A stretch of DNA of 44,974 nucleotides, taken from positions 6,271-51,244 of the forward strand of contig JAHBMJ010005962.1 of assembly GCA_018398765.1 (NCBI GenBank), read 5' to 3'. A model generated the notes under the pieces. That model saw only the letters and a list, made by a program, of their open reading frames with translations, was not told the DNA's origin and made no database searches. This document shows positions 7,062 through 44,923 of this stretch, piece after piece. Position numbers and translations under genes: made by a program. The DNA comes from Chromera velia (taxonomy: Eukaryota; Sar; Chromeraceae). Numbering within the stretch: position 1 is the stretch's first letter; each line of letters starts with the position of its first letter.

Positions 7062-10000
7062 ATGGAGCTGGAGGGCGGTAGAGTCCAGCGTGCGGTTCAG
7101 GAGAAGGAGCAGAATGATGCCGACAGGAGAGAACATAAGAGACGGCAGAACCTCCGTAAGAAGGAGAGAAATGAGGAGGAATTGCTGCGGTGCTTGCAGA
7201 GAGTCGGGAACTCTCCAGACTCATCCCTCTTATGCCGTCTTCATCACAAGGTTCTTCTCAGAGACGGAGACGGCGTATCGGAGACGGAAACAACAGTTCT
7301 GCCTCCTTTCATTGAATGGGACACATTCCCCTCATCAGTGGATCCCCTCAAGGGTGGGCAGCTGCAGGGGAGAAAGGGGGGCGCCAGGGGACCCAACAAA
7401 CGCCTGCAGATCGAGGGCTTCTATGCCGTCCTGCGCCCGGTGCTCTGTGCTCTGCGGAGGGAAAAGATAAAAAGGGGGGATATGACTCCGATCCGGGTGT
7501 GTTTATTTATCATTGTTCGCTCCATTTCTGCCCGGTTCTTCTCTGGTCTCTTGAGACTCAAGGCACGCTTCTTCTTTCATGTTTTCGGTCTGGACTTCAA
7601 ACGTACATAAAAGACGACGTAAATAAATTCCATGCAGTCAGTCTGATGAAAAGAGAAAGAAATGATGTGCAGGTTTGGTGAGGATGATCAAGCTCGGGTA
7701 GAGGTAGATGGATGGATAGAGCGTATAACCGATGGATGGGTGGATGACTGTGTGTGAGGGGGAAGATGCGTATGATGTAATAAGGAGCAAGAGGGTGATC
7801 GAAGGTTTGATTGACTGAAAGAAGCAGCGGAGAAGGCCGATCATCCCTTCTGTTTCTTTTGTTGTCTGTGTGCAGACCTCATGTAGATAATTCTGGCAAG
7901 AAAGCCTGCCTCCCTGCCTGCCGGCTGCGTGAAATCTGTTTGTGCAGGTAGTGGACTTTGGAGGAGGGAGCGGGAACTTCTCTCTCGCCCTCGCCTTTGC
8001 TTTGAGATCGGAGTGCAAGTTCTTGATTGTGGATATCAATGGTCAGTCTATCCGACAGGATAGCACGTGACAGAGTCCTGACACTGTTTTAAGCGGAAAC
8101 AAATTGTTTCTGCCTCAAAATATCCCCGCGTTTATTTTTTGCATATTCATGCTGGAGCGCATGTTGATTTTTTTTTTATGTGGGGTCAGAAAGTCGGTTG
8201 TTATCATTGCCAACACAATTGAGCGAGCATATGCAAGCACAGGTTTGGCAACGGCAGTTTCATGCACAAGTGCTTGCGGATGGGTTTCGCGGTGAGCAAC
8301 TTCGAAGCGACCGTGTTTGCAAATGTTTTTGGAAAGCTTGCGTATCGGCACGCGCAAACTGTCGGATGAAGAGCTTTCGTACGCGAGTTTCTTCCGCCCG
8401 CAAGTTTTCCAAAAACATTCGCAAAAACGGTCGTTTTCAAAGTCGCGCATGCGTACGCTTGCTCAATTGTTTTGGCAATGACAATATCCGCAGCTTGCTT
8501 GCCTTCTCAGAAAAACCTCTTCTCTTTCACGCATGACTCGCCTGACCTACGTGCAGCCCACGCTCTGGCACTTGCGCAAGAGAGAGTTCGGTCTGCTGGG
8601 CTGGAGGAGACCGTGTCTGTTCTCTGTGCTCCTGTGGAGGCTGCACACCTCTGTGAGCCGAATGGAGGGCGAGAGGAGAAAGGGGGGGGGAAGTTGAAAG
8701 AACCAAAAGAAACGACACTTGGAGATTTTGATGTGGGCATAGGGATGCATGTGTGTGGGGTTGCTACTGACATCGCACAGCTTCAGTCGCTGCGTGCAGA
8801 CGCGGTCTTCCTTCTCTGCAGCTGTTGTGTCGGGAAAGTAGGCACCGCCATCGCAAAGGAGAGAGAGAAGAAGGAAGGGGAGGCGTCCAGTCAGGGAAGA
8901 GAAAAAGAAGGGGGGGTAGTAGAACCTGACACAGCGCTTGACGAGAAGGAAAAGGAAGAAAAGGGAGAGAGGGAGACTGTTTTGGGCGTTTCACATCCGC
9001 GTTCGTTGCTTTTGCGTCAAAGTCTGTCTCCACAAGAATTTGCAGCAATAGCCGCAGCCTCCGATCGCCTTCCTTCCATTCAAGGAGAAAAGAACAAAAA
9101 GAAGACATTTATAAGCGAGAATGGAGAAGCGGGGGAGAAGGAAGACCCAAAAGTTCACAGAAGATGCAAAACACTCGTAGAGGCAGACAGGAACCAGGCA
9201 GCATCTGAGGCTCCATTCCATTATGCAACAAGGCTTCTCCGTCTCCACCCCACCACCTGCACACCCAAAAACGATCTAATCCTCGGATTTCCCCCTCGTC
9301 TTGCTGACTCCCTCTGTAGCCATCTGGAGTTTCTGCCCGACACGGAAGAGGACGTGCATGCAGAAGCAGAGAACGGGTTGGTGGGAAGAAGCGGGGAAAG
9401 GCAGAAGGTGGAAAAAGCAGAGAAGAGCAAACCTTCACCAGTAGATGGAAAGGGGGACGGAGCAGGAGGGGGAGGGGGTGGCCGGATGGATAGCGACGCG
9501 GCCAATCGTCAGGAGGCTCTGCGTGATACCTCTGTGTGTTGTGCCTTTTTCATCAAACGAAAAGAGAGACAGTGTCGTCTGATGCCTATATCAGAAGACT
9601 CCCCTTTCTGTTCCCTCCACCAACCGAACCAACTGGAAATGGTGAGAAAGCAGACAGAGACAAAACGGCAAGAGCATTTGAAAAGAGTCGAAAAAGGTGA
9701 GACAAATGAAGAGGAAAAAGAAGAGGAGGGAGACGGGTCTTCACCTGCCAGCTCTTCTGCAGAACCGCAGAGTCTGTCCATGGGGAGGGTATCGTCTGCC
9801 ACCACAAGGATGCAAAATCCCTTAGCACAACAACACCAGGTTCCCGTCTCCCCACCTGATTGGCTCTCTGTGTGGGAGGATCCTTCTCTCCCTGTGCACA
9901 TAGACATCGGCTGTGCAAGAGGGAAGATGCTCTTGGACCTTGCAAGAAAGGACAAAGAGAGGGGAAAGGAAAAGGGAAAGGGAGAAGAAAGATGGAATTA

Positions 10001-11189
10001 TTTGGGAATCGAAATTCGAGCTGCCGCTGTTGACGAGGCAAATCTCGTGAAGCAAAAAGAAGGACTTGCAAACGTCCATTTCGTTGCAACCAACTTCGCT
10101 GTCTCGGCCGACGTTCTTCTGTCTAGTCTGCAGAAGAAACAGGGGTGCGGGCCTGTCCGTCGGGTGTCCATTCTTTTTCCGGATCCTTGGCTGAGGTCGG
10201 ATAGGACGCATGTCGTTTTCTTTCGTTCATTCGTTCGTTCGTTTGTTCTTTCTTTCTTGCTTGCTTGCCTTCGTTGTTCTTTTCTTTTTTCGTGTCTCGC
10301 TGTGTGAGTGTATACAGAGAGAGCGGCTCGGTCCTGTGCATTGATTCTGGTTCTGCGAGTGCTGGCCTGTCGCAGACGAGCCTTGAGTCCTTTTTGTGAC
10401 TGCGCAGTTGTGCCAAATCGAAAAGCCGTACAGGGGGCGGTCTAGACATTTAGCTCTGTTATCTCCAGAATTTCTCTTCATGAGGCGGGTGACTGTGGGT
10501 CTGTCTCCGTGCTCCCTTGCCCCGTTTTAGCAGACAAGACCAGACAGACATCAAAGTAACTTTTGAGGCTGAATATGGGAATTGGTTCATTTCTCAATTC
10601 ATCACTCTGTGTTGTTAGTGGCTTCCTTGGTCTGTGTAAGTTTTCTATCTCACCCTCGATCGAACGCAATTGCGTTCTGTGGGGGGGATAGATGCACGTG
10701 ACCGAACTTTAAGGGGTTTGAAAGGAATCACAAGCGCACAACGAAATTCCGTGCAGGTCCCGTCACAAGAAAAGGAGACTGGTGCAGCCTGAGCTGGCCA
10801 GAGAACTGTGCAAACTCCTGCCTGCCGGGTGCGCCCTCTTCGTGTGTAGTGACAGAAAAGAGCTGGCAGAGGACATGTGCGAAGCGATCGAGACGGGGAG
10901 CGAGGAGGCACGGCAGGATTTGGGGAAGGGATTCGTCCGCAGGTTGTTGCGAGAACAAGGAGGGGATCCATTGGAGGGTACTCAGAGGGGAGACTCGGAG
11001 GTGTGTGGGGCAGAGAGACGCACAGGCGGGGTGTCGGGAGAGACGGGACACGAGTGCAGAGAGAGAAAGTGGTGGGGCCCCGACCCTCTCGGGATGGGAA
11101 TTGAGAGTGAGAGGTCCCTTGTGTGTCAAATGCGTCATCTGGATGTGTGGAGGGCCCTCTTCGACCTTGTTGGGGAGCCAACCTGCTAG
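7062..11189 (+). CDS. Trimodular RNA methyltransferase: GSTCD-like MTase + TRM13-type zinc finger + TrmB/TRM8 tRNA m7G methyltransferase
   Basis: Exons 7062-7496, 7948-8041, 8557-10195 and 10757-11189 join in frame to about 866 residues. Residues 146-176 hold a SAM-binding VVDFGGGSG motif, and DFDVGIGMHVCGVATD (~233) plus CSCCVGK (~265) match the Methyltransf_32 domain of GSTCD-like proteins. A CCAFFIKRKERQC...FCSLH segment (~503-531) has the Cys-Cys-Cys-His spacing of the TRM13 CCCH finger. From ~624 a second methyltransferase appears: HIDIGCARGK, then LFPDPW, then RHKKRRLVQPEL across the last intron, and a C-terminus like plant TrmB (PLGMGIESE). TrmB/TRM8 makes 7-methylguanosine at tRNA position 46; the first domain's substrate is unknown. 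The domains are separated by charged Lys/Glu-rich linkers. The junction between the first domain, finger and TrmB is one continuous exon, so the fusion is not a splicing guess. The start is uncertain; upstream in-frame ATGs fall in the GC-rich segment. Confidence 0.82.
8200..8482. mobile_element. Inverted-repeat (MITE/foldback-like) element inside an intron
   Basis: Within intron 2 of the methyltransferase fusion, the left end (TCATTGCCAACACAATTGAG, from 8204) matches the reverse complement of the right end (CTCAATTGTTTTGGCAATGA, 8462-8481) with one mismatch. The inner segment GACCGTGTTTGCAAATG (near 8309) likewise matches the reverse complement of CATTCGCAAAAACGGTC (near 8416). The arms are unequal because the left arm carries about 60 extra bases. 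Such a near-palindromic, non-coding body suggests a small non-autonomous transposon or foldback element. No transposase is present and I could not define target-site duplications. Confidence 0.6.
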
Positions 11190-19509: not shown

Positions 19510-22500
19510 TTATCCAAACCCAGCGGGCCCGTTGCTATCCTCCCCTTCAAGCCCAAACGCTGCGGCCACTGCATCGTACGACGGACTCCCCGGCCGTGCA
19601 GCAAAATGTTCCCCTTCTTCTTCCCCTGTGGGCTCTTCCTCCTCCCTCTCTCTCGTCATAGGAACTGCTCCTTCCAAGGCAGTGTGTCCTCCCTCTGCAA
19701 TTCTGCTGCTAGTGGGGTCTGCAGAAGCATGTGGAAGAGGAGCGAGTCCAACCTCGAAATTCCCAAACGCCTCTCCGGATGGATCGGCCCCTATCCTTGT
19801 TTGCTGCTGACTGTTGAAGGATGATGATGGGGCGTGTCCAGTTGGAATGTCTGGGGATACCCCCGCTTCTGCATGCACCCCTGGCACCATCCCAGCTTGT
19901 GTGGGCACCCCTGTCGCCATCATCCCGTCACTGGGATACCTCAGGTGACCTGACGGCTCAGAAGGGAAAACACCCAGCAAATCAGACTCAAAAGAAGTCC
20001 CCCCTTGCCCCTCCATGCCCCCTGGTCCTGCAGGTACAGGGGGCCCTGGGGGTGCTTGAGGTTGTTCGACTGAAGCCGGGAAGTGAGAATGAGAGGGGGC
20101 GGCAGTTGCCTGCGGTCCCGAAAAGCCGGTTTGCGGCACTCCGCTGTGTGAATCTTCACGAGGATATTCCTGAGTGCTGGGAAATCCGTAGGGGTCAACA
20201 GGGGGTTGGGTAGGTTGGAAGGGGGCGGCGCCAAACGGAGGTTCTGAGGGTCCGGGGCCATGGGGAGGGGTGGGGTCGGCATAGAGACCCTGAGGGTTAG
20301 GAGTTATGGATTGGGGGGGGGGGCTTTGCATTGTCTTGTGTTGGATGGGGAAGGACGGAGGGACATCCTGCGGTACAACTGGTGGAACGGGAGGGGTAAC
20401 AGGCATTTGTGTTTGTGTCATATGCGGCGTCGGGGGACTGACGGAAAAGGGGGCCGATTGCGGCGGCGGGCTTCCAGAGAAAGGTGGGCATTGCGGCGGC
20501 GGGAATGCAGAGGACGAAAAGGCCTCTGCTGCGTTCTGCGGGGGGAAAGTTTCGGACGTGGGCGTTGCAGGAGGAGACGGACGAGAAGGCGGGATGGGGG
20601 GCGGGGCAGCGGCTGATGCCCCAAAAGGGTCGGACAGGGGTGCAGAAGTAGGGGGTGGCGGCGGGGGAGAGGGGCCGTCTCTTCGTGCTGCTGGAGGGGG
20701 TGGAGGCGGTGGTGAGATTCGGGTGGGCCCTCCAGACAGAGGATTGGACATGGATGTGGGTTGAAATGGCGCCGCCACAGCTACAGCCCCCCGCTCTTGT
20801 GCGATCTCTTGTGCCTTCTTCTGTTGATGAGGGACAGCTACTGACGGAAGGAATTTGGGTCGGCTGGGTGTGATGGTGTCCGACTGTCCTGTTGTACTGG
20901 CGATAGGCTGAAAGGTCAAAGGTGATGGGACGTTCGACAGAAGATCTTCTTTTCCGTGATGAAGTCCCGCGGACCTCTCACCACCTCCCCCGTCTCCCAC
21001 ACAGACCAGGAGCGGATTTGTGAACACAAACACACGACCTTCTGCAAGGTGCGAAGGGTCTGTAGAGGAACGTAGGGCCTGTCCCCCGGAGGCTGCGGCC
21101 CCATGCCCGTGGGCTGGCACACCTCCCTCTCTGTGTCGTTTGAGAATCTCTAACCTGATTTTGTTGAGGTCAAATACCCCGGGGCTAACGAACGTCGCTT
21201 CGAGATCGCAACTTGCGGCGGCGCCCGGTTGGAGGTCCCGGAGAAGCACTGCTGTCTCCCCAGTCCAAAAGAATCCTCTCAAAAATCCCCCTGTAATGTC
21301 GTCAGGGGTGATCGGACCGTCGTCCGTCACCCCTGACAAAGCCGCCTGGGCGATTGAGAGGTCTCTTGACGCGCTTCCGTTGTCGGCTGCCACGAGGACA
21401 TCGACTGTGTCTGCGTCTGACAAGTTCCTGACGCACACCTTGACACTCACTGAGGGCAGGCTCTCTGCTGTCCACTGAATGGAATAGGCCTCTGGAATAG
21501 CAGACATTTGGAGGGGGCACTTGGTTATGGATGGGGTCAGGGGAACCTGCAAAAAGACGCGTGAAGAGCACAAAGTGGTGTGTGCCCGTAAAGCTTCCTC
21601 AGAAGCTGTAGATGTCCCCTTGAGAGCTGAAAAAGCGTTGTCATGCGGGTAGACCGACGTTTAACAGAAAGAAAGACAGGCTATCAGTTAGGCAAAATGA
21701 AAAAACAAACAAACAAACAAACACTAAGGGGAGGAATCCGCCAAGGACGAACGAAAGCGAACTCTCGACGCGACGCATCTTTCCTCCCTCAATCCCCAAC
21801 TGTCTGATTGAAGCAAGTCGCTCAACACACCCACTGACTCACTTTGAATTCAAACACCTCCCCTGACTTCATCCTCTCCTCGCACCTCCAGGGGACAACC
21901 ACATCCAGGTGAGCGAGGTCGGGTGTCTCGACTCCCGGACTGCAGAAGTCACTTCTTTCACATTCAGTGGAAAGCAGACTGACGGACACACGGAGATAGA
22001 CAGATAATGCGGTAAGAACAGCTAGAGAAGCAAAAGAAGCAGACAGAAAGGAACTGAGAAAGAAACATGGTAAGGGAAGTGGCATTTAGGGGGTCGCTCA
22101 AAACTTACATACAGGGAGAGCCGAAGGAAATAATGAGGAACGGCCATACCAGATTGACTTTTTCCTAAAAGAAAGGCCAGGCGGCAAACTTGACTTTGCT
22201 TGCACCGACTCCAGGGCTCGAGGAAACGAATTTGATCACACAAAACGATTTCTGCAGCACACCCACATCATCAGACAAGAAACCCCAACCACAGGGTCAG
22301 TATGCAAAACCAGACATCCCACCGACCTCTTTGTCTCTGCTTCTCCCCTCTGGTGTTGTTCCTGAAGTTTCTGCTGCATGGCCGAAGACCGAGCTAAAAT
22401 CGGGTCCAGGGCATCACTTTCTGGCTGATAGTCCAACCGGGCCTTTCGGCGTCTCTCCCGGGCCTCCGCCTCCCTCGTTGAGTGCCCCAGCCGACAGGCT

Positions 22501-32531: not shown

Positions 32532-34545
32532 ACGTGTGAATCAGGTAGGCGTGAGAAAAGAAGAAAACGAGAATATAGCCAACGTGGAAAATGAGGGCGA
32601 GTGGTTGTACGGACAGAGAAAAACGCTCATTCTGCCCCCCTCTGTCCTTCCTTCTTTGCTTGCTTGTAGCAGAGTGTGACCTTCGTTCTTTCTCTCTTTC
32701 TTCTCTAATGAAACGAAAATCTGCACCCCGTCCCTTCCTCTGTGGGGTCTGAGGGAGGATTCGATTGCGTGTTCGTGCGCTCATATTCGGATATTGATTT
32801 ACACAGACGTACGGCTTTTGCGTGTACGTGCAAAAGAAAAGGGGGTCACTCATGGAATGGTTTTGCAGATCTCTCGTTGGGGCACCGACGCTCAGAAGGA
32901 GAAGTACCTGCCTCTTCTGATCGCTGGAGAGTGGCTTGGGGCACTGGCAATGAGTGAGCCTGGCTCCGGCAGTGACGTTGTGTCGATGAGAAGCGTAGCA
33001 GCAGAGGAGACGCCTGGGGGGGACTTCATCTTGAATGGAACGAAGATGTGGATCACCAACGGGCCCTCTGCTGATGTGATTGTGGTGTATGCAAAAACGA
33101 AGCCGGATGCAGGATCGAAGGTCGGGCTGGGGGGGGAGGGGGGGGGGAGGGGGCCATGCCCAGACTCACTCTCACACGCCCCCACGCCCACACCCACGCA
33201 TACAAACGCACCTGTAAATAAACTCACCGGGTGACTGGAGCATTGGGGAGGCAAGTGAGGGAATTTCACTGTCTCCCATTTGACTGCATCGCCGTTCTCC
33301 GTTTTTAAAATTTTGATGCCCTTTGATGTCCTTCTCGCGGTTCCCCCGCATGCCCCGCCTGCTTCAACCGTGTTCCTGCACAGGCAGGGCAGTCGCTGTC
33401 AAAAAGTATGTACCCGTTAGAGATCCTGATCTCAAATCTGCATGGAGAAAAAATTGCGTCTGCCTGTCTTCTATGTTCGCAGGGAATCACCGCGTTCCTG
33501 GTCGAAAGGGAGATGCCGGGCTTCTCAGTCGCACAGAAACTCGACAAGCTTGGTCAGCCAAACAAAGAAGAAGGAACGAGGGGGTACTCAGAGAGAGGGA
33601 AGAAGAAAAGAGAAGGACGAGGATTGAAGCAGAGGGAAGACGGATGCATATGCGCATGCATGCACAGAAGAGCAAGTGCGCTTGCCCCCTGTCGCGTTTC
33701 TTCATCTTCCACTCCCAAAGCGGAAGAAGGGCACTTGTTTTTTTGCCTGCCTTGTGCGTTTTCGTCTACATGGACCTGTCTGTGTGCATGCAGAGTGGCC
33801 CGAATAGATTGGTGAACCAAAAAAATTACATGCAAAGAAAATGAGAGACGGATGAGTGTACTGATGCATTCTTGCAGGCATGCGAGGCAGCGAGACAGGA
33901 GAGTTGGTGTTTGACAACGTGAAGATCCCCAGACAGAACATTCTTGGAGAGCTCCATGGAGGAGTGAAGGTGCTGATGTCGGGACTGGACTCCGAGAGAC
34001 TTGTGCTGGCTGCAGGACCTATTGGGTCGGTCTCTCAGCCTGAAACACGGGACCTCTCTCTCTGTGTGTGTATGTGTATGTGTGTCTGTGTGAAGACTCT
34101 CATTATGGTGACTGGACCTCGATGTCCCCTTTCTCTCTTGCAGTCTGATGCAGGCAGCATACGACGAGGCCCTTCCCTACGTGAACACACGGGAGCAGTT
34201 CGGTCAGAAGATAGGGGACTTCCAACTGGTCCAGGCGCACATTGCAGACATGTACACGACTCTAGTGTCCCACCGCGCCTTTCTGTACTCATTGGCAAGG
34301 GCCTACTCGGAGGGACAGGCGGGCCGCGCTGACTGCGCTGCCGCCATCCTGACGTGTGCCGAGAAGGCCACTTGGATGGCTCTGCAGGCGATCCAGCTGT
34401 TGGGAGGGAACGGGTACATCAACGAGTACAAGACCGGAAGAATTCTCAGAGACGCCAAGCTGTATGAGATTGGGGCAGGTACGCTGCAGATGTGCGCGTC
34501 TGGGTGTGTGAGTGAGTGAGTGAGTGAGTGTGTGTGTGCGTGTGT

Positions 34546-37201: not shown

Positions 37202-40200
37202 TCACTGCCCCTTCAGCAGAAGACGGCGACCATAGATAGCGCCAGCAGGACCGTAGTTGTTGCCGGTCCAGACGTTGTTGGTGTTGTAGTTCGGGCCGCT
37301 ATACATGTTCTGAGTGCGGTAGTCGTTGTAGTTTCCAGCGATGTGGCCGAAGTTCTGTTGGCCAAACTTCTCAGTCTCGTCTTCGGCAGAGACGGCGGGG
37401 GACTCCTCAACGACGTTGGAAGTCTCAGTCTGCAGGTACGGAAGGAATGGGGCAAAAGGTTAGGGGAACACCAAAAGGCAAGGGTGTGAACGGAAGAGCC
37501 GAAAGGAGCTACCGAAACGAATGAGAGTCCAGAAGCGAAGGTGCGAAGAACACAACACGGACGAAAGAGCGGAAAAGAGCTAGCGAAAAGAATGAGAGTC
37601 TAAAAGCGAAGAGGTGCGAAGAACAAACGGTAACCCAGCTCACCTGAGAAGGTTCAGCAATCTCCACAGCAACAGCCTCTCCCTCCTGCTCCTCCTGGAG
37701 ACGGCGACCCTGAATAACGCCGACAGGGCCGTAGTTGTTGCCGGTCCAGACGTTGTTGGTGTTGTAGTTCCGGCCGGTGTACATGTTCTGCGTGCGGTAG
37801 TCGTTGTAGTGTCCGCCGATGTGGCCGTAGTATGACTGGCCAAACTTTTCGGTCTCGTCCTCGGCGGAGACGGCGGGGGACTCCTCAACTACGTTCTGCA
37901 AAGAGACAACATCCACAGAAGAAGTGGCAGAGGCTTGTGTTGGGGCCTCGCTAGGTACCGTTGCTTCGAAATTGCTGTTGGCTTCTCAACAAAGACGGAG
38001 GACGTGAGACCAAAGACCTTCCACAGAACAGCAAGAGCTGGAGTTGCGGAAAGGTGAAAGGGAAAGGCGGAAGAGAAAGGATGGAGGGGGGAGCAAAGAA
38101 TGAAAGAAGGAAAGAAGGAACGAAAAGGAAGGAGAAAAGGAAAAAAAGGAAGAGAAACGACTCCTGAAAGAAGCGGACAGACAGGGCGTGAGCCGATAGC
38201 AAGAAAATGGAACAGTGAGATCAGCGCATTGGAGAGAGACCGGGTCGGGAGATGACCCACCTCTGCAAGCTCCTCATTCGGGGTGACAGCTGCAGCCTCT
38301 CCCTCCTGCTCCTCCTGGAGACGACGTCCCTGGATGGTGCCGACAGGGCCGTAGTTGTTGCCGGTCCAGACGTTGTTGGTGTTATAGTTCGGGCCGGTGT
38401 ACATGTTCTGCGTGCGGCGGTCGTTATAGTTTCCGCCGATGTAGCCAAAGCCTTGTCTGCCAAACTTTTCAGTCTCGTCCTCGGTGGAGACGGCGGGGGA
38501 CTCCTCAACTGCGTTCTGCAAAGAGGCAACAAGTGAGTGTTGGCGCTCTCTTCAGGGGGCTTTCGTTGACGTGGACAATACCAGATCTGGGCTGATCAGG
38601 AACCAAGACAGTGGTACGACGGAACACTTTTGGGAGGAGCAACAAAGAAAAACCAAACGGCAACAGAGAGCGAAGTCCTAGAAAACATAGCGAGTTAAAG
38701 CGCAACAATACTGACGAAGAGCCCAAAGCGGACATCCAAAGAAAGATACAGGGAAGGAGAGTAAGGAGAGAACAGCTTGGGAGATGACCCACCTCTGCAG
38801 TCTGAGGAGAAGTCTCCTCAGTGGGGGTGGCAGCTGCGGCCTCTCCCTCCTGCTCCTCCTGAAGACGACGTCCCTGGATGGTTCCGACAGGGCCGTAGTT
38901 GTTACCGGTCCAGATGTTGTTGGTGTTGTAGTTCGGGCCGCTGTACATGTTCTGCGTGCGGCGGTCGTTATAGTTTCCGCCGATGTAGCCGAAGTCCTGT
39001 CTGCCAAACTTTTCAGTCTCGTCCTCGGCGGAGACGGCGGGGGACTCCTCAACTACGTTCTGAAAAAAAAAAAATGGCATGTAAGGTGTGGCTCCCTCTT
39101 CAGAGTTCTTTTGTTGACGTGGACAAAAGCAAACATGGGCTGATCAGAAATCAGGACAGTGAGACGATTACAGCAACGAAGAATAAAAGAACGTCTCGGA
39201 AGAGAGGTGGTCTAGAAAACAAGGCGAGTCACACGGGTCAAAACCAAAAGCCCAAAGCGGGCACCTAAAGGCAGACACATAGAGGGAGAGATTGCGTCGG
39301 GAGATGACTCACCTCTGCAGTCTGGGAAGTCTCCTCCTTCTCCTCCTGGAGACGGCGTCCCTGGATGGTTCCGACGGGGCCGTAGTTGTGGCCGGTCCAG
39401 ATGTTGTTGGTGTTGTAGTTCGGGCCGGTGTACATGTTCTGCGTGCGGTAGTCGTTGTAGTGTCCGCCGATGTGGTTGAAGTTTTGTTGGCCAAACTTTT
39501 CGGTCTCGTCCTCGGAAGCGACGGCGGGCGGCTCCTCAACGACGTTGGATGGCTGAGCGACGGTCTGCAGGCAGAACAGAGAAGAAAAAACCGAATTCAG
39601 ATGGTGTCAAAGGGCTGTGAGGCGCTGATCAACTGGGAGCGATTGGGAAAGGAAGGAGAGAGGAGGGTGGTCTGTGAGGATCAGGGGAAGTGCGAGAAAA
39701 GAGAACGCGTCTCACATTCACATTGACTGCCATAGGATCACGGAGAGGACAGAGAGGACAGGAGACAGGATGGCACAAGGATTTATTCAGACAAGACTTG
39801 CAAGGTACAAGTCCACAGATGCGAGGCACGTACCTCCTCGGCAGTTTGCGTCTGTTCCTGGAGACGGCGTCCCTGAATAATACCAACAGGGGCATAGTTG
39901 TCGCCAGTCCTGATGGTGGTAGTCGAGAACGGTGTTGTGGCTGCACCTGTAACGAGAGTCTGCGTGCCAGTGGCGGTGCAGGATCCTCCAGAACAAGTGA
40001 GGGCGGTTCCAGGACCAGTGCTCACAGTAGTGCTGCCTACACTTCCAACAGACGAGACAACGGTGGCAGGGACCTCAATGGGATCGACGGTGGCGGGGGG
40101 GGCGGACACCGTTGTGACACTACCCGTGGGGCCGGAGACGGTCGTAACCGTGGAAGTGGCAGTGGAGGTATTGATGGGTGCCCGGTAGGTAAGGACGTTA

Positions 40201-40781
40201 TAGGTAGGGTCAGCGATGTGATGGACAGCATAGCTTTGGCCGCCAACAGCAGGCGCCACGGTGACACCCGAGCCGGTGACAGTGGCACCGCCGGCAGCGT
40301 AGGCGATGTTGACCCCGCCGGCCGAGACTGAGACGGGTCCAGCATAGGTAACCGCGGAGGGAGACGAAGAGACTGTGGAGACGGTTGAAGTGGTAGGCGA
40401 CGACGAAGCCACAGTAGTCGCGGCAGGGGAAGATGTCACGACTGTCGCGGTGGCAGGAGCAGGGGCGGGGGAAGTGACCACGGTAGTTGGAGCTGTAGCA
40501 GGCGCAGAGGAGACGGTGGTTGCGGGGGCGACAACCGTGGTGCCAGAAGGGACGACGCTACCAACCACAGGCCCAAAGTTGCGGCCAGTCCAGACGCTGG
40601 TGCTGGTGGAAGTGGGGCCACTGAAGTGGTTCACGGTCGGTCCACCTCTATAGCTGCCACCCAGGTAGCCAATGTTAGTGGTACCAAAAAGGTTGCGTGT
40701 CCCAGCAGACTCAGGAACAGCCGTCTCCTGACCCTTGCAGGCAAGGAAAGAACTGAGCAAAAGGAGGCAGGCGCGCTTCAT
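37202..40781 (-). CDS. Secreted modular Tyr/Asn/Gly-rich repeat protein with GRRLQE sites (paralogue A)
   Basis: Six minus-strand exons, all joined in phase 0: 39834-40781, 39313-39564, 38793-39059, 38261-38515, 37644-37895 and 37202-37429, giving 732 residues. Exon 1 has a signal peptide (MKRACLLLLSSFLACKG), a divergent half-module (FGTTNIGYLGGSYRGG, then VNHFSGPTS), a long Ser/Thr/Val/Ala-rich stretch with one Cys pair (CSGGSC), and a closing half-module (RTGDNYAPVGIIQGRRLQE). Exons 2-5 each encode one 84-89 residue module: an acidic start (VEESPAVSTEDETEKFG), a core (YNDYRTQNMYTGPNYNTNN, then VWTGNNYGPVG), GRRLQEE, and an acidic/Ala linker. Exon 6 is a variant ending IYGRRLLLKGQ before TGA 37202-37204. 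I recognise no family. Export is supported by the signal peptide; a wall, matrix or adhesive role, and cleavage at RR, are inference. Confidence 0.8.
37430..37643 (-). repeat. Intron nearly identical (inverted) to 43280-43493
   Basis: This 214 bp intron of paralogue A, read on the minus strand (GTGAGCTGGGTTACTGTTTG through to CCGTACCTGCAG), matches the 214 bp intron 3 of paralogue B almost base for base. One clear difference is CTTTTAGACTC against CTTTTAAACTC. Confidence 0.9.
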
Positions 40782-41291
40782 CTGGGATGAAAATTGAGTA
40801 CAGCTGCACCACAACGAATCACACACGCAGAACTCAACACAGCACAGTGCAAAGAATTCTCTTTTTGACCGAGGAGGGTGGGCCTTCTGCTCGTGTTTCA
40901 TGCAGCCTCACGCAAGAAAAAGCGGACTTTTTTTGGGAAAAATTTCTTTGTTGAGAATGAGATCCCGGAAAGAAAGTTGGGGGGCACGTTCAAGTTCGCA
41001 ACCTCGTTCAAGCGGAGAGTTACGGATGCTCGCACGGAGGTTGCCGCAGAGGTCAATGCGCCCACGCGCCGCGCGCCGGCCGGCCGTTTCGCGCGCGCGG
41101 GGCAGGGTGGCATGCACGTACATTCGGGCGCATTCTCTGAGTTTTTTTTTTCGATTGTAGTGTCCCAAAAAAAGTGATCGAAGAAAGAAACATCCACTGA
41201 GGCCAGGTCATCCGGAGCTGTGAGAGATATTAACAGTTAGCTGTTTGTAGTTTTTGGTGCTGTTTCTGAGCTGTAAATTCGTGTTATCGCG
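40782..41291. promoter_or_regulatory. Bidirectional promoter of the modular gene pair
   Basis: 510 bp separate the two divergent ATGs. A CpG-dense block at 41060-41105 (CACGCGCCGCGCGCCGGCCG, then the 13-mer CGTTTCGCGCGCG at 41085-41097 and CGGGGCAGGG) is followed by GCATGC at 41112. The same 13-mer lies upstream of the secreted cysteine-rich gene at 17150. Position and the shared box suggest a promoter element used by several genes for secreted proteins; direction of action is not known. Confidence 0.55.
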
Positions 41292-44200
41292 ATGAAGCGT
41301 GCCTGTGCATTGCTCCTCTGCCCCTTTCTGGCATGTCAGGGCCAAGAGACGGCTCAGAGACGCCTGTTCGGTCAGACCAACATTGGTTACCTGGGAGGTC
41401 AATACAGGGGCGGACCTACTGTGAACCATTTCTCTGGTCCCACCTCTACCAACACCGTCTCATGGACTGGCCAGAACTTCGGTCCCGTCGGCACCCCGGT
41501 TGAAGTTCCAACCGGCACACCGGTGGCCGAAGTTCCCGCCAGCAGCGACGCCGATCCTACGAGCGTGCCTGCAGACAGCGCAGTCCCTACAGCAGAGCCG
41601 GCTGCTGATGGTGCCACAGCGCCTGCAGAGCCCGAGGCTGCACCTGCCATCCCAGAAGCTGCCCCCCCCACCAGTCTCGGTGGCCCCGGTAGTGCGACAT
41701 TCAGCATTCCTTCTGGTCCTGGAGCCACCCTCACCTGTGGACCGGGTGGCTGTACTCAGACCGGAGCACAGACTGTTCTCGCTGGGCCGGCTGCTTCCCC
41801 GACAAGCCACACCACCATCTACACTGGGGACAACTATGCCGCCGTCCCGTTCTTGGCTGGTCGTCGTCGTCGCCTGCAGGAGGAGGGAGAAATTGCTGAG
41901 GAGGTGAGTGCCCTGTCTCACGTCCACGTTCTTTGTTCCTTTCTTCCTTCCTCCCCTCCCTTCTTTCCGCCTTTCATTCCTTCCTTCCCTTCCTTCCCTT
42001 CTCCTCTTCCCCCTTCTTTCCCTCTTCACCCTTCCTTCCCTCTCTTCTCTTCCTTCCCTTCGACTTTCCCCAAGTTCAACTCTCGCCGTTCGTGAGTTCT
42101 TCCTCTGGTAGTACGTTCTCTGTCTTCGTTGACGAGTCGACAAATACTTTCGATGTAATCGTCAGTAGCAAGCGTCCACCACAGAAGTCTTGTGCCTCTT
42201 CTCTGCGTATTGCCTCTTTGCAGAACGTAGTTGAGGAGTCCCCCGCCGTCTCCACCGAGGACGAGACCGAAAAGTTTGGCCAACAAAACTTCAACCACAT
42301 CGGCGGACACTACAACGACTACCGCACGCAGAACATGTACAGCGGCCCGAACTACAACACCAACAACGTCTGGACCGGCAACAACTACGGCCCTGTCGGC
42401 GTTATTCAGGGACGGCGTCTTCAGGAGGAGCAGGAGGGAGAGGCTGCAGCTGCCACCCCCACTGAGGAGACTTCTCCTCAGACTGCAGAGGTGGGTCATG
42501 TCCCGCCCGACGCAACCTCTTTCTTTTGGGTGTTCGCTTTGGAGAATTTTCTTCCATTGCATTGATCGCACAGTTCTGTTTTATTTCTGTCGGCTTGCGC
42601 CCTTCCTGTCCGCTTCTTTTAGGATTCGCTGCTCTTCTTTTTTCCCCTTTTCTCCTGCCTTCCGTCCTTCCTTCGTTCCCCTTCGCTGCCGTCCTTGACT
42701 TTCGTCCTTTCTTATCCCCCCCCAGCTTCCCTCTCTCCCTTCCTTCCTTCCTTCCTTCCTTCCTTCCTTTATGCTTCTTTCCCTTCTTTCCTTCCTCAGT
42801 TGTTTTTCGTTCATAACCCGTCCTTCACTTTTTTTCCTTCCGTCGTCCTTTCTGTTTTTCCTCCTCCTTCGTTTTGTTCGCCTTACTGCAAGTCCAGATT
42901 GTCGCCGTCTGGTGGTCCGTTAGTCCTCTGTCTCTTTGATCAGTGAACGGAGAATTGGTTTGGAACGATCCGTTGAGGAGGTCTTCCAGAGGTCCCACGC
43001 CCCCCCTACAATGTTTTTTCTTTGCAGAACGTAGTTGAGGAGTCCCCCGCCGTCTCCACCGAGGACGAGACTGAAAAGTTTGGCAGACAGGACTTCGGCT
43101 ACATCGGCGGAAACTACAACGACTACCGCACGCAGAACATGTACACCGGCCCGAACTACAACACCAACAACGTCTGGACCGGCAACAACTACGGCCCTGT
43201 CGGCGTTATTCAGGGTCGCCGTCTCCAGGAAGAGCAGGAGGGAGAGGCTGTTGCTGTGGAGATTGCTGAACCTTCTCAGGTGAGCTGGGTTACTGTTTGT
43301 TCTTCGCACCTCTTCGCTTTTAAACTCTCATTCTTTTCGCTAGCTCTTTTCCGCTCTTTCGTCCGTGTTGTGTTCTTCGCACCTTCGCTTCTGGACTCTC
43401 ATTCGTTTCGGTAGCTCCTTTCGGCTCTTCCGTTCACACCCTTGCCTTTTGGTGTTCCCCTAACCTTTTGCCCCATTCCTTCCGTACCTGCAGACTGAGA
43501 CTTCCAACGTCGTTGAGGAGTCCCCCGCCGTCTCTGCCGAAGACGAGACTGAGAAGTTTGGCCAACAGAATTTCGGCCACATCGCTGGAAACTACAACGA
43601 CTACCGCACTCAGAACATGTACAGCGGCCCGAACTACAACACCAACAACATCTGGACTGGCAATAACTACGGCCCTGTCGGAACCATCCAGGGACGCCGT
43701 CTCCAGGAGGAGCAGGAGGGAGAGGCTGCAGCTGCCACCCGCACTGAGGAGACTTCTCCTCAGACTGCAGAGGTGTGTCATGTCCCACCCGACGCAACCT
43801 CTTTCTTTTGGGTGCTGGCTTTGGAGAATTTTCTTCCAGTGCACTGATCGCACAGTTCTGTTTTATTTCTGTCGGCTTGCGCCCTTCCTGTCCGCTTCTT
43901 TTAGGATTCGCTGCTCTTCTTTTTTCCCCTTTTCTCCTGCCTTCCGTCCTTCCTTCGTTCCCCTTCGCTGCCGTCCTTGACTTTCGTCCTTTCTTATCTT
44001 CCATCTCTCCCTTCCTTCCTTCCTTCCTTCCTTTATCCTTCTTTCCCTTCTTTCCTTCCTCAGTTGTTTTTCGTTCATAACCCGTCCTTCACTTTTTTTC
44101 CTTCCGTCGTCCTTTCTGTTTTTCCTCCTCCTTCGTTTTGTTCGCCTTACTGCAAGTCCAGATTGTCGCCGTCTGGTGGTCCGTTAGTCCTCTGTCTCTT

Positions 44201-44923
44201 TGATCAGTGAACGGAGAATTGGTTTGGAACGATCCGTTGAGGAGGTCTTCCAGAGGTCTCACGCCCCCCCTGCAATGTTTTTTCTTTGCAGAACGTAGTT
44301 GAGGAGTCCCCCGCCGTCTCCACCGAGGACGAGACCGAAAAGTTTGGCCAACAGAATTTCAACTACATCGGCGGACACTACAACGACTACCGCACGCAGA
44401 ACATGTACAGCGGCCCGAACTACAACACCAACAACATCTGGACCGGCAACAACTACGGCCCTGTCGGCGTTATTCAGGGTCGCCGTCTCCAGGAGGAGCA
44501 GGAGGGAGAGGCTGTTGCTGTGGAGGGGCCTATGCGTGAGCAAGTCAGTCGTCTCTCTTGTACTGTTTTCGATCTTGCCAACTTGTTTTATCTCCAGCAC
44601 TTTCTCCCTCTCTCCCTTTTCCTGTTGATCCAGATCCACAGGCCCACACTCTTTTCGCCCTCGTTGTGCTCCTTCAACCTGTCTCTGTGTGCTTTCAGGC
44701 TGAGACTCCTGTCCTCATGGAGGGGGGGGCCTCCACCACTGCGCAAAGCGAGGGGGCTGAGAAACAGAACTATGGAACTGTGATGGGTAACTATAACGAT
44801 AACCGGGGTGCTACGTCGAACACGTACTACCAGACAAACCACTACGCTCGTCCGACCACGAACAACTACAACGTCTGGACGGGAGATATGTACGGAGATG
44901 CTGGGGGAATTTATGGACGCTAA
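41292..44923 (+). CDS. Secreted modular Tyr/Asn/Gly-rich repeat protein with GRRLQE sites (paralogue B)
   Basis: Six exons in phase 0: 41292-41903, 42224-42490, 43028-43279, 43494-43772, 44292-44543 and 44699-44923, giving 628 residues, with stop TAA 44921-44923. Exon 1 encodes a signal peptide (MKRACALLLCPFLACQG), RRLFG (23-27), a half-module (NIGYLGGQYRGGPTVNHFSG, then WTGQNFGPVG), a Pro/Ala/Glu-rich stretch with a CGPGGC pair, and the closing half-module YTGDNYAAVPFLAGRRRRLQ-E. Exons 2-5 are near-identical modules of 84-93 residues with the core MYSGPNYNTNNVWTGNNYGP, then GRRLQEEQEGEA. Exon 6 is a degenerate module (GNYNDNRGATSNTYYQTN ... NVWTGDMYG) ending IYGR with no RRLQ. All junctions have GT-AG and matching phase. 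The family is unknown to me. The protein should be exported; cleavage into module units is inference. Confidence 0.82.
42739..42770. repeat. (TTCC)n microsatellite
   Basis: A TTCC run in intron 2 of paralogue B; a shorter homologous run occurs in intron 4 at about 44010-44034. Confidence 0.88.
43280..43493 (+). repeat. Intron nearly identical (inverted) to 37430-37643
   Basis: Intron 3 of paralogue B, 214 bp, GTGAGC to ACCTGCAG. It is the plus-strand partner of the paralogue A intron. Its flanking exon ends (ATTGCTGAACCTTCTCAG and ACTGAGACTTCCAACGTCG) also match those in paralogue A exactly. Confidence 0.9.

What the first reader, a model, noticed from the sequence alone, without database searches (positions are those of the whole stretch)
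37202..44923. Candidate secreted polyprotein: repeated modules each ending in a GRRLQE site
Seen: two genes encode a signal peptide plus six modules; ten of the modules (exon 1 closing part and exons 2-5 in each gene) end with an RRLQ-E sequence followed by an acidic linker, and the last module of each gene has changed or lost the site. Known: dibasic sites are cut by kexin-type proteases, and RRLxE/RxLxE is the TEXEL/PEXEL motif cut by ASP5/plasmepsin V in apicomplexans. Inference: the precursor is cut into equal Tyr/Asn/Gly-rich units that are secreted, perhaps as wall, matrix or adhesive subunits.
Basis: partly seen in the sequence, partly recalled or inferred. Interest (0 to 1): 0.82.

Follow-up and report, generated by a model that had tools for sequence, protein, structure and literature searches.

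The report
Algal secreted precursors with repeated RRL sites
A probable free-living relative of the malaria and Toxoplasma parasites seems to make secreted proteins as strings of units joined by the same three-residue signal that the parasites' export protease cuts, which suggests the parasite system may have grown out of an older way of making extracellular proteins.

Summary
Two head-to-head genes (40781-37202 minus, 41292-44923 plus) each have six phase-0 exons and a hydrophobic start; exons 1-5 of both end RRLQE, 10 of 10. A further site follows gene B's leader (QRRL|F).

They belong to a dispersed family in the same 177.8 Mb genome. Over 11 contigs I listed 42 RR(L/M) sites (found by that string), using all six Arg codons at the first position. 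The sites follow unlike things: a Tyr/Asn/Gly module, a Pro/Thr/Ser-rich part, a Kazal/Pro-rich part, a leader. E follows in 23 of 42, so RxLxE is not the family signal.

The genome encodes apicortin and a plasmepsin V/ASP5-type protease: probably a chromerid, Chromera velia by size; species not shown. Toxoplasma ASP5 needs RRL, not the E (PMC4764566, passages).

Best reading: secreted modular precursors cut after RR(L/M), probably by the ASP5/PMV homologue, giving ten acidic units of 75-92 residues, perhaps for wall or matrix. The cut, its enzyme and the use are inferred. Main rival: kexin cutting plus amidation (34 of 42 sites are G-RR); searches for its enzymes did not complete.

The parts
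39834..40781 (-). Gene A exon 1: hydrophobic leader, module-like stretch, Pro/Thr/Ser-rich part, closing RRLQE (39855-39869)
39313..39564 (-). Gene A exon 2: module, RRLQE (39343-39357)
38793..39059 (-). Gene A exon 3: module, RRLQE (38856-38870), acidic linker
38261..38515 (-). Gene A exon 4: module, RRLQE (38312-38326), acidic linker
37644..37895 (-). Gene A exon 5: module, RRLQE (37692-37706), acidic linker
37202..37429 (-). Gene A exon 6: last module, altered site RRLLL (37214-37228), basic tail, stop
40782..41291 (.). 510 bp between the two start codons of the divergent genes; a shared control region is inferred only
   Evidence: coordinates
41292..41903 (+). Gene B exon 1: hydrophobic leader, RRLFG (41358-41372), module-like stretch, Pro/Ala/Glu-rich part, closing RRLQE (41868-41882)
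42224..42490 (+). Gene B exon 2: module, RRLQE (42413-42427), acidic linker
43028..43279 (+). Gene B exon 3: module, RRLQE (43217-43231), acidic linker
43494..43772 (+). Gene B exon 4: module, RRLQE (43695-43709), acidic linker
44292..44543 (+). Gene B exon 5: module, RRLQE (44481-44495), acidic linker
44699..44923 (+). Gene B exon 6: divergent last module, ends GGIYGR and stop (site lost)

Best explanation
These are secreted precursor proteins of a free-living relative of Apicomplexa (probably the chromerid alga Chromera velia), enlarged by duplicating phase-0 exons that each carry one short Tyr/Asn/Gly-rich module and one cleavage site. In the secretory pathway an aspartyl protease of the plasmepsin V/ASP5 type cuts after the Leu or Met of RR(L/M), as Toxoplasma ASP5 does at TEXEL sites. 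This frees acidic units of 75-92 residues and, in other family members, a Pro/Thr/Ser-rich or Kazal-type part. The aromatic-rich, probably unstructured units are then secreted and may assemble or cross-link outside the cell (wall, cyst or mucilage). Shown: gene structure, site conservation in the family, a protease homologue in the genome. Inferred: the cut, which protease makes it, and the use of the products.
For: Ten of ten RRLQE ends and clean phase-0 exons. Family-wide RR(L/M) at 42 listed sites with six Arg codons at P3, five at P2, five Leu codons plus ATG at P1 (RR(L/M) itself fixed by the way sites were found). 29 of 35 W-x-G modules are followed by RR(L/M) within 35 residues. The site follows parts that do not resemble one another: the module, a Pro/Thr/Ser-rich part, a Kazal/Pro-rich part (RRLAE, RRLEE, RRMEE), a leader. 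In L034 and L035 GRRLQ runs straight into NYGYVAGPY, a module start, so a cut after L would free Q-NYGYV. 41 of 67 basic pairs are followed by L/M; the 26 others lie in the module core (18), the Kazal domain (6) or C-terminal tails (2). Plasmepsin V/ASP5-type protease in the genome with DTGS and DSGT. Toxoplasma ASP5 cuts after L of RRL, fails on P3, P2 or P1 mutants, and does not need P2' E (PMC4764566, passages); TEXEL is given as RRLxx (PMC6212819, passages).
Against: No cut has been observed. G at P4 (34 of 42) and Q at P1' (31 of 42) are not explained by ASP5's known needs; Met at P1 (5 of 42) is untested. One further RRL (FRRLD, C2948) lies in a C-terminal tail, not at a domain end. The protease's C-terminal membrane anchor was not reached. 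Kexin and PAM, needed by the main rival, could not be searched, nor could RRLQ in unrelated proteins of this genome. AlphaFold2 gave no usable model, so disorder is a guess. The species is inferred.
Confidence: 0.55

Rival explanations
1. Dibasic (kexin/prohormone-convertase) processing, with trimming of RR and amidation of the exposed Gly, as in classical peptide precursors.
For: 34 of 42 sites are G-RR, the amidation pattern G(K/R)(K/R) used to screen Chlamydomonas precursors (PMC6313938, passages); leader and repeated units as in such precursors.
Against: L or M follows the pair at the boundaries, also at the 8 sites without G (listed by RR(L/M), so not an independent count); 26 of 67 basic pairs elsewhere are not followed by L/M and would be cut too unless shielded. 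Presence of kexin and PAM did not complete (PF00082 and PF01082 requests, see Tried and rejected).
Confidence: 0.2
2. Another endopeptidase reads R-x-L, like the unknown one thought to mature diatom wall precursors, and the ASP5/PMV homologue has other work.
For: RXL at repeat ends in silaffins, frustulins, cingulins and silacidins, with removal by a yet unknown protease (PMC4557024; PMC5525289; passages). Gene A has RNL where gene B has RRL.
Against: A protease of the type known to want RRL is encoded in this genome; the second Arg is nearly constant here, whereas the diatom motif is RXL.
Confidence: 0.13
3. Not cut: GRR(L/M)Q is a structural or charge patch at the end of the module in one long repetitive protein.
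For: Charge changes at the site: the 15 residues after it are net acidic (+0.23 per residue, 37 sites), those before it not (-0.05, 41 sites). Tandem duplication copies any sequence.
Against: The same RR(L/M) ends a Kazal/Pro-rich part and a Pro/Thr/Ser-rich part and follows a leader, and the length before it varies in the module alignment while it is kept.
Confidence: 0.12

Closest known systems
TEXEL/PEXEL substrates cut by Toxoplasma ASP5 and plasmepsin V (PMC4764566, PMC6212819; passages)
   Same: Leader; RRL core with free P2'; internal sites; RRLAE in one paralogue; homologous protease encoded.
   Different: Many sites per protein at the ends of repeated modules; RRM in one gene; organism probably free-living, no host-cell export known.
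Diatom silaffins, cingulins, silacidins, frustulins (PMC4557024, PMC5525289; passages)
   Same: Secreted precursors with RXL at repeat ends; in cingulins Tyr/Trp-rich regions.
   Different: No KXXK and little Lys (9 and 6 residues); other lineage; second Arg nearly constant.
Eimeria GAM56/GAM82 oocyst-wall precursors (PMC3770453; passages)
   Same: Relatives of the same broad group; precursor thought to be cut into Tyr-rich peptides for a wall.
   Different: Cutting of GAM56 there was blocked by serine-protease inhibitors, not by pepstatin A; no RRL repeat plan described in the passages; no sequence comparison made.
Amidated peptide precursors, with Chlamydomonas as algal case (PMC6313938; abstract and passages)
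   Same: Leader, repeats, G-RR sites.
   Different: L/M after RR at boundaries; large acidic units; other basic pairs inside units.

Membership tests
TEXEL (ASP5) substrate | RRL at P3-P1 | tested here: met
   12 RRL in genes A and B; 37 L and 5 M of 42 listed in the family
TEXEL (ASP5) substrate | N-terminal signal peptide | tested here: met
   Hydrophobic 11-residue stretch from residue 5 in both; hydropathy only, no signal-peptide predictor
TEXEL (ASP5) substrate | ASP5/PMV-type protease in the organism | tested here: met
   best solved relative plasmepsin V, DTGS and DSGT present; membrane anchor not seen; no tree made
TEXEL (ASP5) substrate | Protease-dependent cut after L | not testable with these tools
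   needs protein chemistry
PEXEL (plasmepsin V) substrate | RxLxE/Q/D | tested here: inconclusive
   met at the ten window sites; P2' is E or D in 27 of 42 in the family
Diatom RXL wall precursors | RXL at repeat ends | tested here: met
Diatom RXL wall precursors | KXXK lysine clusters (silaffins, cingulins) | tested here: not met
   0 KXXK in genes A and B
Amidated peptide precursor | Gly before the basic pair | tested here: met
   34 of 42
Amidated peptide precursor | Kexin-type convertase and PAM in the organism | not tested
   requests for PF00082 and PF01082 did not complete (calls listed in Tried and rejected)
Eimeria GAM56-type wall precursor | Tyr-rich peptides cross-linked in a wall | not testable with these tools
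   Tyr+Trp+Phe 9.0-10.7% in the ten units; location and cross-links unknown

The most novel reading that the evidence does not exclude
Cutting after RRL by the plasmepsin V/ASP5-type protease is older than parasitism: its ancestral work was to cut modular secreted precursors, such as wall proteins, into units in free-living algae, and apicomplexans later reused it for host-directed proteins. The unknown diatom RXL protease that matures silaffins and cingulins may be a relative of the same enzyme.
Probability: 0.3. Interest if true: 0.85.

Novelty: new variant of a known kind. Interest (0 to 1): 0.62.

Why it matters
The known work of plasmepsin V and ASP5 is in parasites. A probably free-living photosynthetic relative with such a protease and a family of multi-site RRL precursors offers natural candidate substrates, and so a way to test what the enzyme did before parasitism. 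It also sets side by side two RXL-processing systems, apicomplexan and diatom; in the diatom passages that I read the protease is called unknown. If the units are wall proteins they may also bear on how oocyst walls arose.

Tried and rejected
Known domains: none reported by Pfam for gene B residues 1-377, gene A exon 1 and gene B exon 6, and for a C1453 exon only two matches below cut-off; none by NCBIfam for 2 proteins. No PDB sequence match to the module profile at E up to 1. No relative in the prokaryote genome collection with one module as query (95 pattern matches, none confirmed). Structure: AlphaFold2 on ten window modules gave mean pLDDT 44.2, pTM 0.10; it fits disorder, but the alignment is shallow, so I take it as no result and ran no fold search. 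A strict RxLxE reading was rejected because P2' varies. Of the other aspartyl-protease fragments none shows the Cys-rich insert by eye; only the C500 gene was compared with PDB and no tree was made. Literature: (Chromera, Vitrella, ASP5, TEXEL; 20 of 185 shown) lists one paper holding more than two of these terms, PMC8540915; I saw its passages and section 10: its tree included Chromera and Vitrella proteases, but the text I saw names no chromerid member of the plasmepsin V clade. Lists (16 of 16; 5 of 5; 15 of 73; 12 of 134; 12 of 16,623; 8 of 8,405) show no title on RRL precursors of chromerids; this is no proof of absence.

Rows dropped before counts: one search used 25 peptides (genes A and B, and 23 exon or gene peptides from nine contigs). 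Left out: C1418 (looks degraded, borders unclear; its 2 sites are among the 42), C538 (no module found), the first exons of C1453 and C170. Two overlapping frames of C1453 were entered as separate peptides. Pairs starting in the first six residues were skipped and runs counted once. The FRRLD of C2948 is but not among the 42. Paralogue exon borders were set by eye.

Unanswered: rRNA family RF01960; pattern for GRRLQE in the genome; PF00082; PF01082. and part of 102 were only waits.
Full report
OBSERVATION. The two genes are as drawn. Gene A (minus, 40781 to 37202, 733 aa) and gene B (plus, 41292 to 44923, 628 aa) stand head to head, each with six exons, all a multiple of three, with GT/AG borders. 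Both begin MKRAC and a hydrophobic stretch; no later 19-residue stretch averages above 1.3 on the Kyte-Doolittle scale. Exons 1-5 of both end with RRLQE, 10 of 10. Gene A's last exon has RRLLLK; gene B's ends GR and stop. Among eight modules pN/pS is below 1 in 27 of 28 pairs, 1.10 in one. Genes A and B share 94.7% identity over 717 bases that include an intron, so the window copies are recent and count little as independent evidence.

THE FAMILY. A search of the window's own genome (177.8 Mb, 4040 contigs) with one module gave 35 matches at E up to 1 on 12 contigs. A small profile found the module on the window's contig and ten others, C3899, C1453, C2512, C170, C2948, C1142, C2301, C1418, C1166 and C3868; C538 gave none. 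The paralogous stretches aligned are 26-42% identical to module B2. In the members where I read borders by eye, several repeat the plan of one module per phase-0 exon, then site, then mostly acidic linker.

THE SITE. I listed 42 RR(L/M) sites. They were sought by that string, so P3 to P1 are fixed by construction; the informative facts are the rest. P3 uses six Arg codons, P2 five, P1 five Leu codons and ATG: the DNA has diverged while the residues held. P1 is L in 37 and M in 5. P4 is G in 34; P1' is Q in 31; P2' is E in 23, D in 4, G in 8, other in 7. Counted without the site, 29 of 35 W-x-G modules have RR(L/M) within 35 residues; five of the six misses run into a Pro-rich part, the sixth is gene B's last module. 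Four last modules (gene A, C3899, C1453, C2512) have L at P1' and a basic tail. The site follows unlike things: the module; a Pro/Thr/Ser-rich part; a Kazal-type domain with a proline-rich tail (Kazal_1 above cut-off in 3 of 3 such proteins scanned), where it reads RRLAE, RRLEE or RRMEE; and a leader. In L034 and L035 GRRLQ runs straight into NYGYVAGPY, a module start. One further RRL (C2948, FRRLD) is in a tail.

WHICH PROTEASE. Of 67 basic pairs in 25 family peptides, 41 are followed by L or M. Of the 26 others, 18 lie in the module core (such as DQRR|Q and NDRR|T), 6 in the Kazal domain and 2 in C-terminal tails. A protease that reads pairs alone would meet both kinds unless the inner ones are shielded. 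The genome encodes an aspartyl protease whose best solved relative is plasmepsin V: 148 bits from its first long exon (next 41), 171 bits with later exons joined (next 52), with DTGS, DSGT and the Cys-rich insert. Toxoplasma ASP5 cuts after L of RRL, fails on P3, P2 or P1 mutants, does not need P2' E, and is said to mature substrates at both N- and C-terminal ends (PMC4764566, abstract and passages); TEXEL is given as RRLxx (PMC6212819, passages). So the family's RRL with free P2' fits ASP5 better than it fits PEXEL. Against this: G at P4 and Q at P1' are not known ASP5 needs, M at P1 is untested, the membrane anchor was not reached, and G-RR is the classical amidation pattern (PMC6313938, passages). 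Whether kexin, PAM or RRLQ in unrelated proteins are present could not be asked.

ORGANISM. Apicortin/DCX (L066, 228.6 bits to Toxoplasma DCX) and the PMV-type protease place the genome near Apicomplexa. At 177.8 Mb it is well above Vitrella (72.7 Mb) and near, but not equal to, published Chromera velia (193.66 Mb, 5953 scaffolds; PMC4501334, passages). The species is inferred.

WHAT THE UNITS DO. Cutting after each RR(L/M) would give ten units of 75-92 residues, pI 4.1-4.7, 9.0-10.7% aromatic, besides the N-terminal parts. AlphaFold2 gave no fold, with a shallow alignment. By analogy, diatom wall precursors carry RXL at repeat ends and the protease is unknown (PMC4557024; PMC5525289), and Eimeria oocyst walls are thought to use Tyr-rich pieces of a cut precursor, there by a serine protease (PMC3770453). 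I favour an extracellular structural use, with less confidence than the cutting.

VERDICT. It works like a TEXEL-processed and like a diatom RXL-processed precursor; membership of either is not shown, since no cut has been seen, and KXXK of the diatom proteins is absent.

Noticed in passing
window 8370-10307, plus strand: One open frame holds a TRM13-type CCCH zinc finger followed by a TrmB-like methyltransferase domain (zf-TRM13_CCCH and Methyltransf_4 above cut-off), an apparent joining of two tRNA-modification parts; introns not worked out.
   Followed up: partly
L037, L039, L042 (contigs C2948, C2301, C3868); L041 by eye: Family members with a leader, a Kazal-type domain and a proline/arginine-rich tail ahead of an RR(L/M) site (Kazal_1 above cut-off in the three scanned).
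   Followed up: partly
window 42224-43261 and 43506-44525: A two-exon block of gene B with its intron is duplicated at 93.8% identity over 1038 bases.
   Followed up: partly
L040 (contig C1418): A diverged copy of gene B's start (leader, QRRLLG) with a separate stretch ending GRRLQEE; looks partly degraded.
   Followed up: no
window 19510-21660, minus strand: Part of a TRAPPC8-like gene (Ig_TPPC8_C above cut-off) with a long proline-rich stretch.
   Followed up: no
window 32680-33234, plus strand: Exon of an acyl-CoA dehydrogenase gene (Acyl-CoA_dh_M and _N above cut-off).
   Followed up: no
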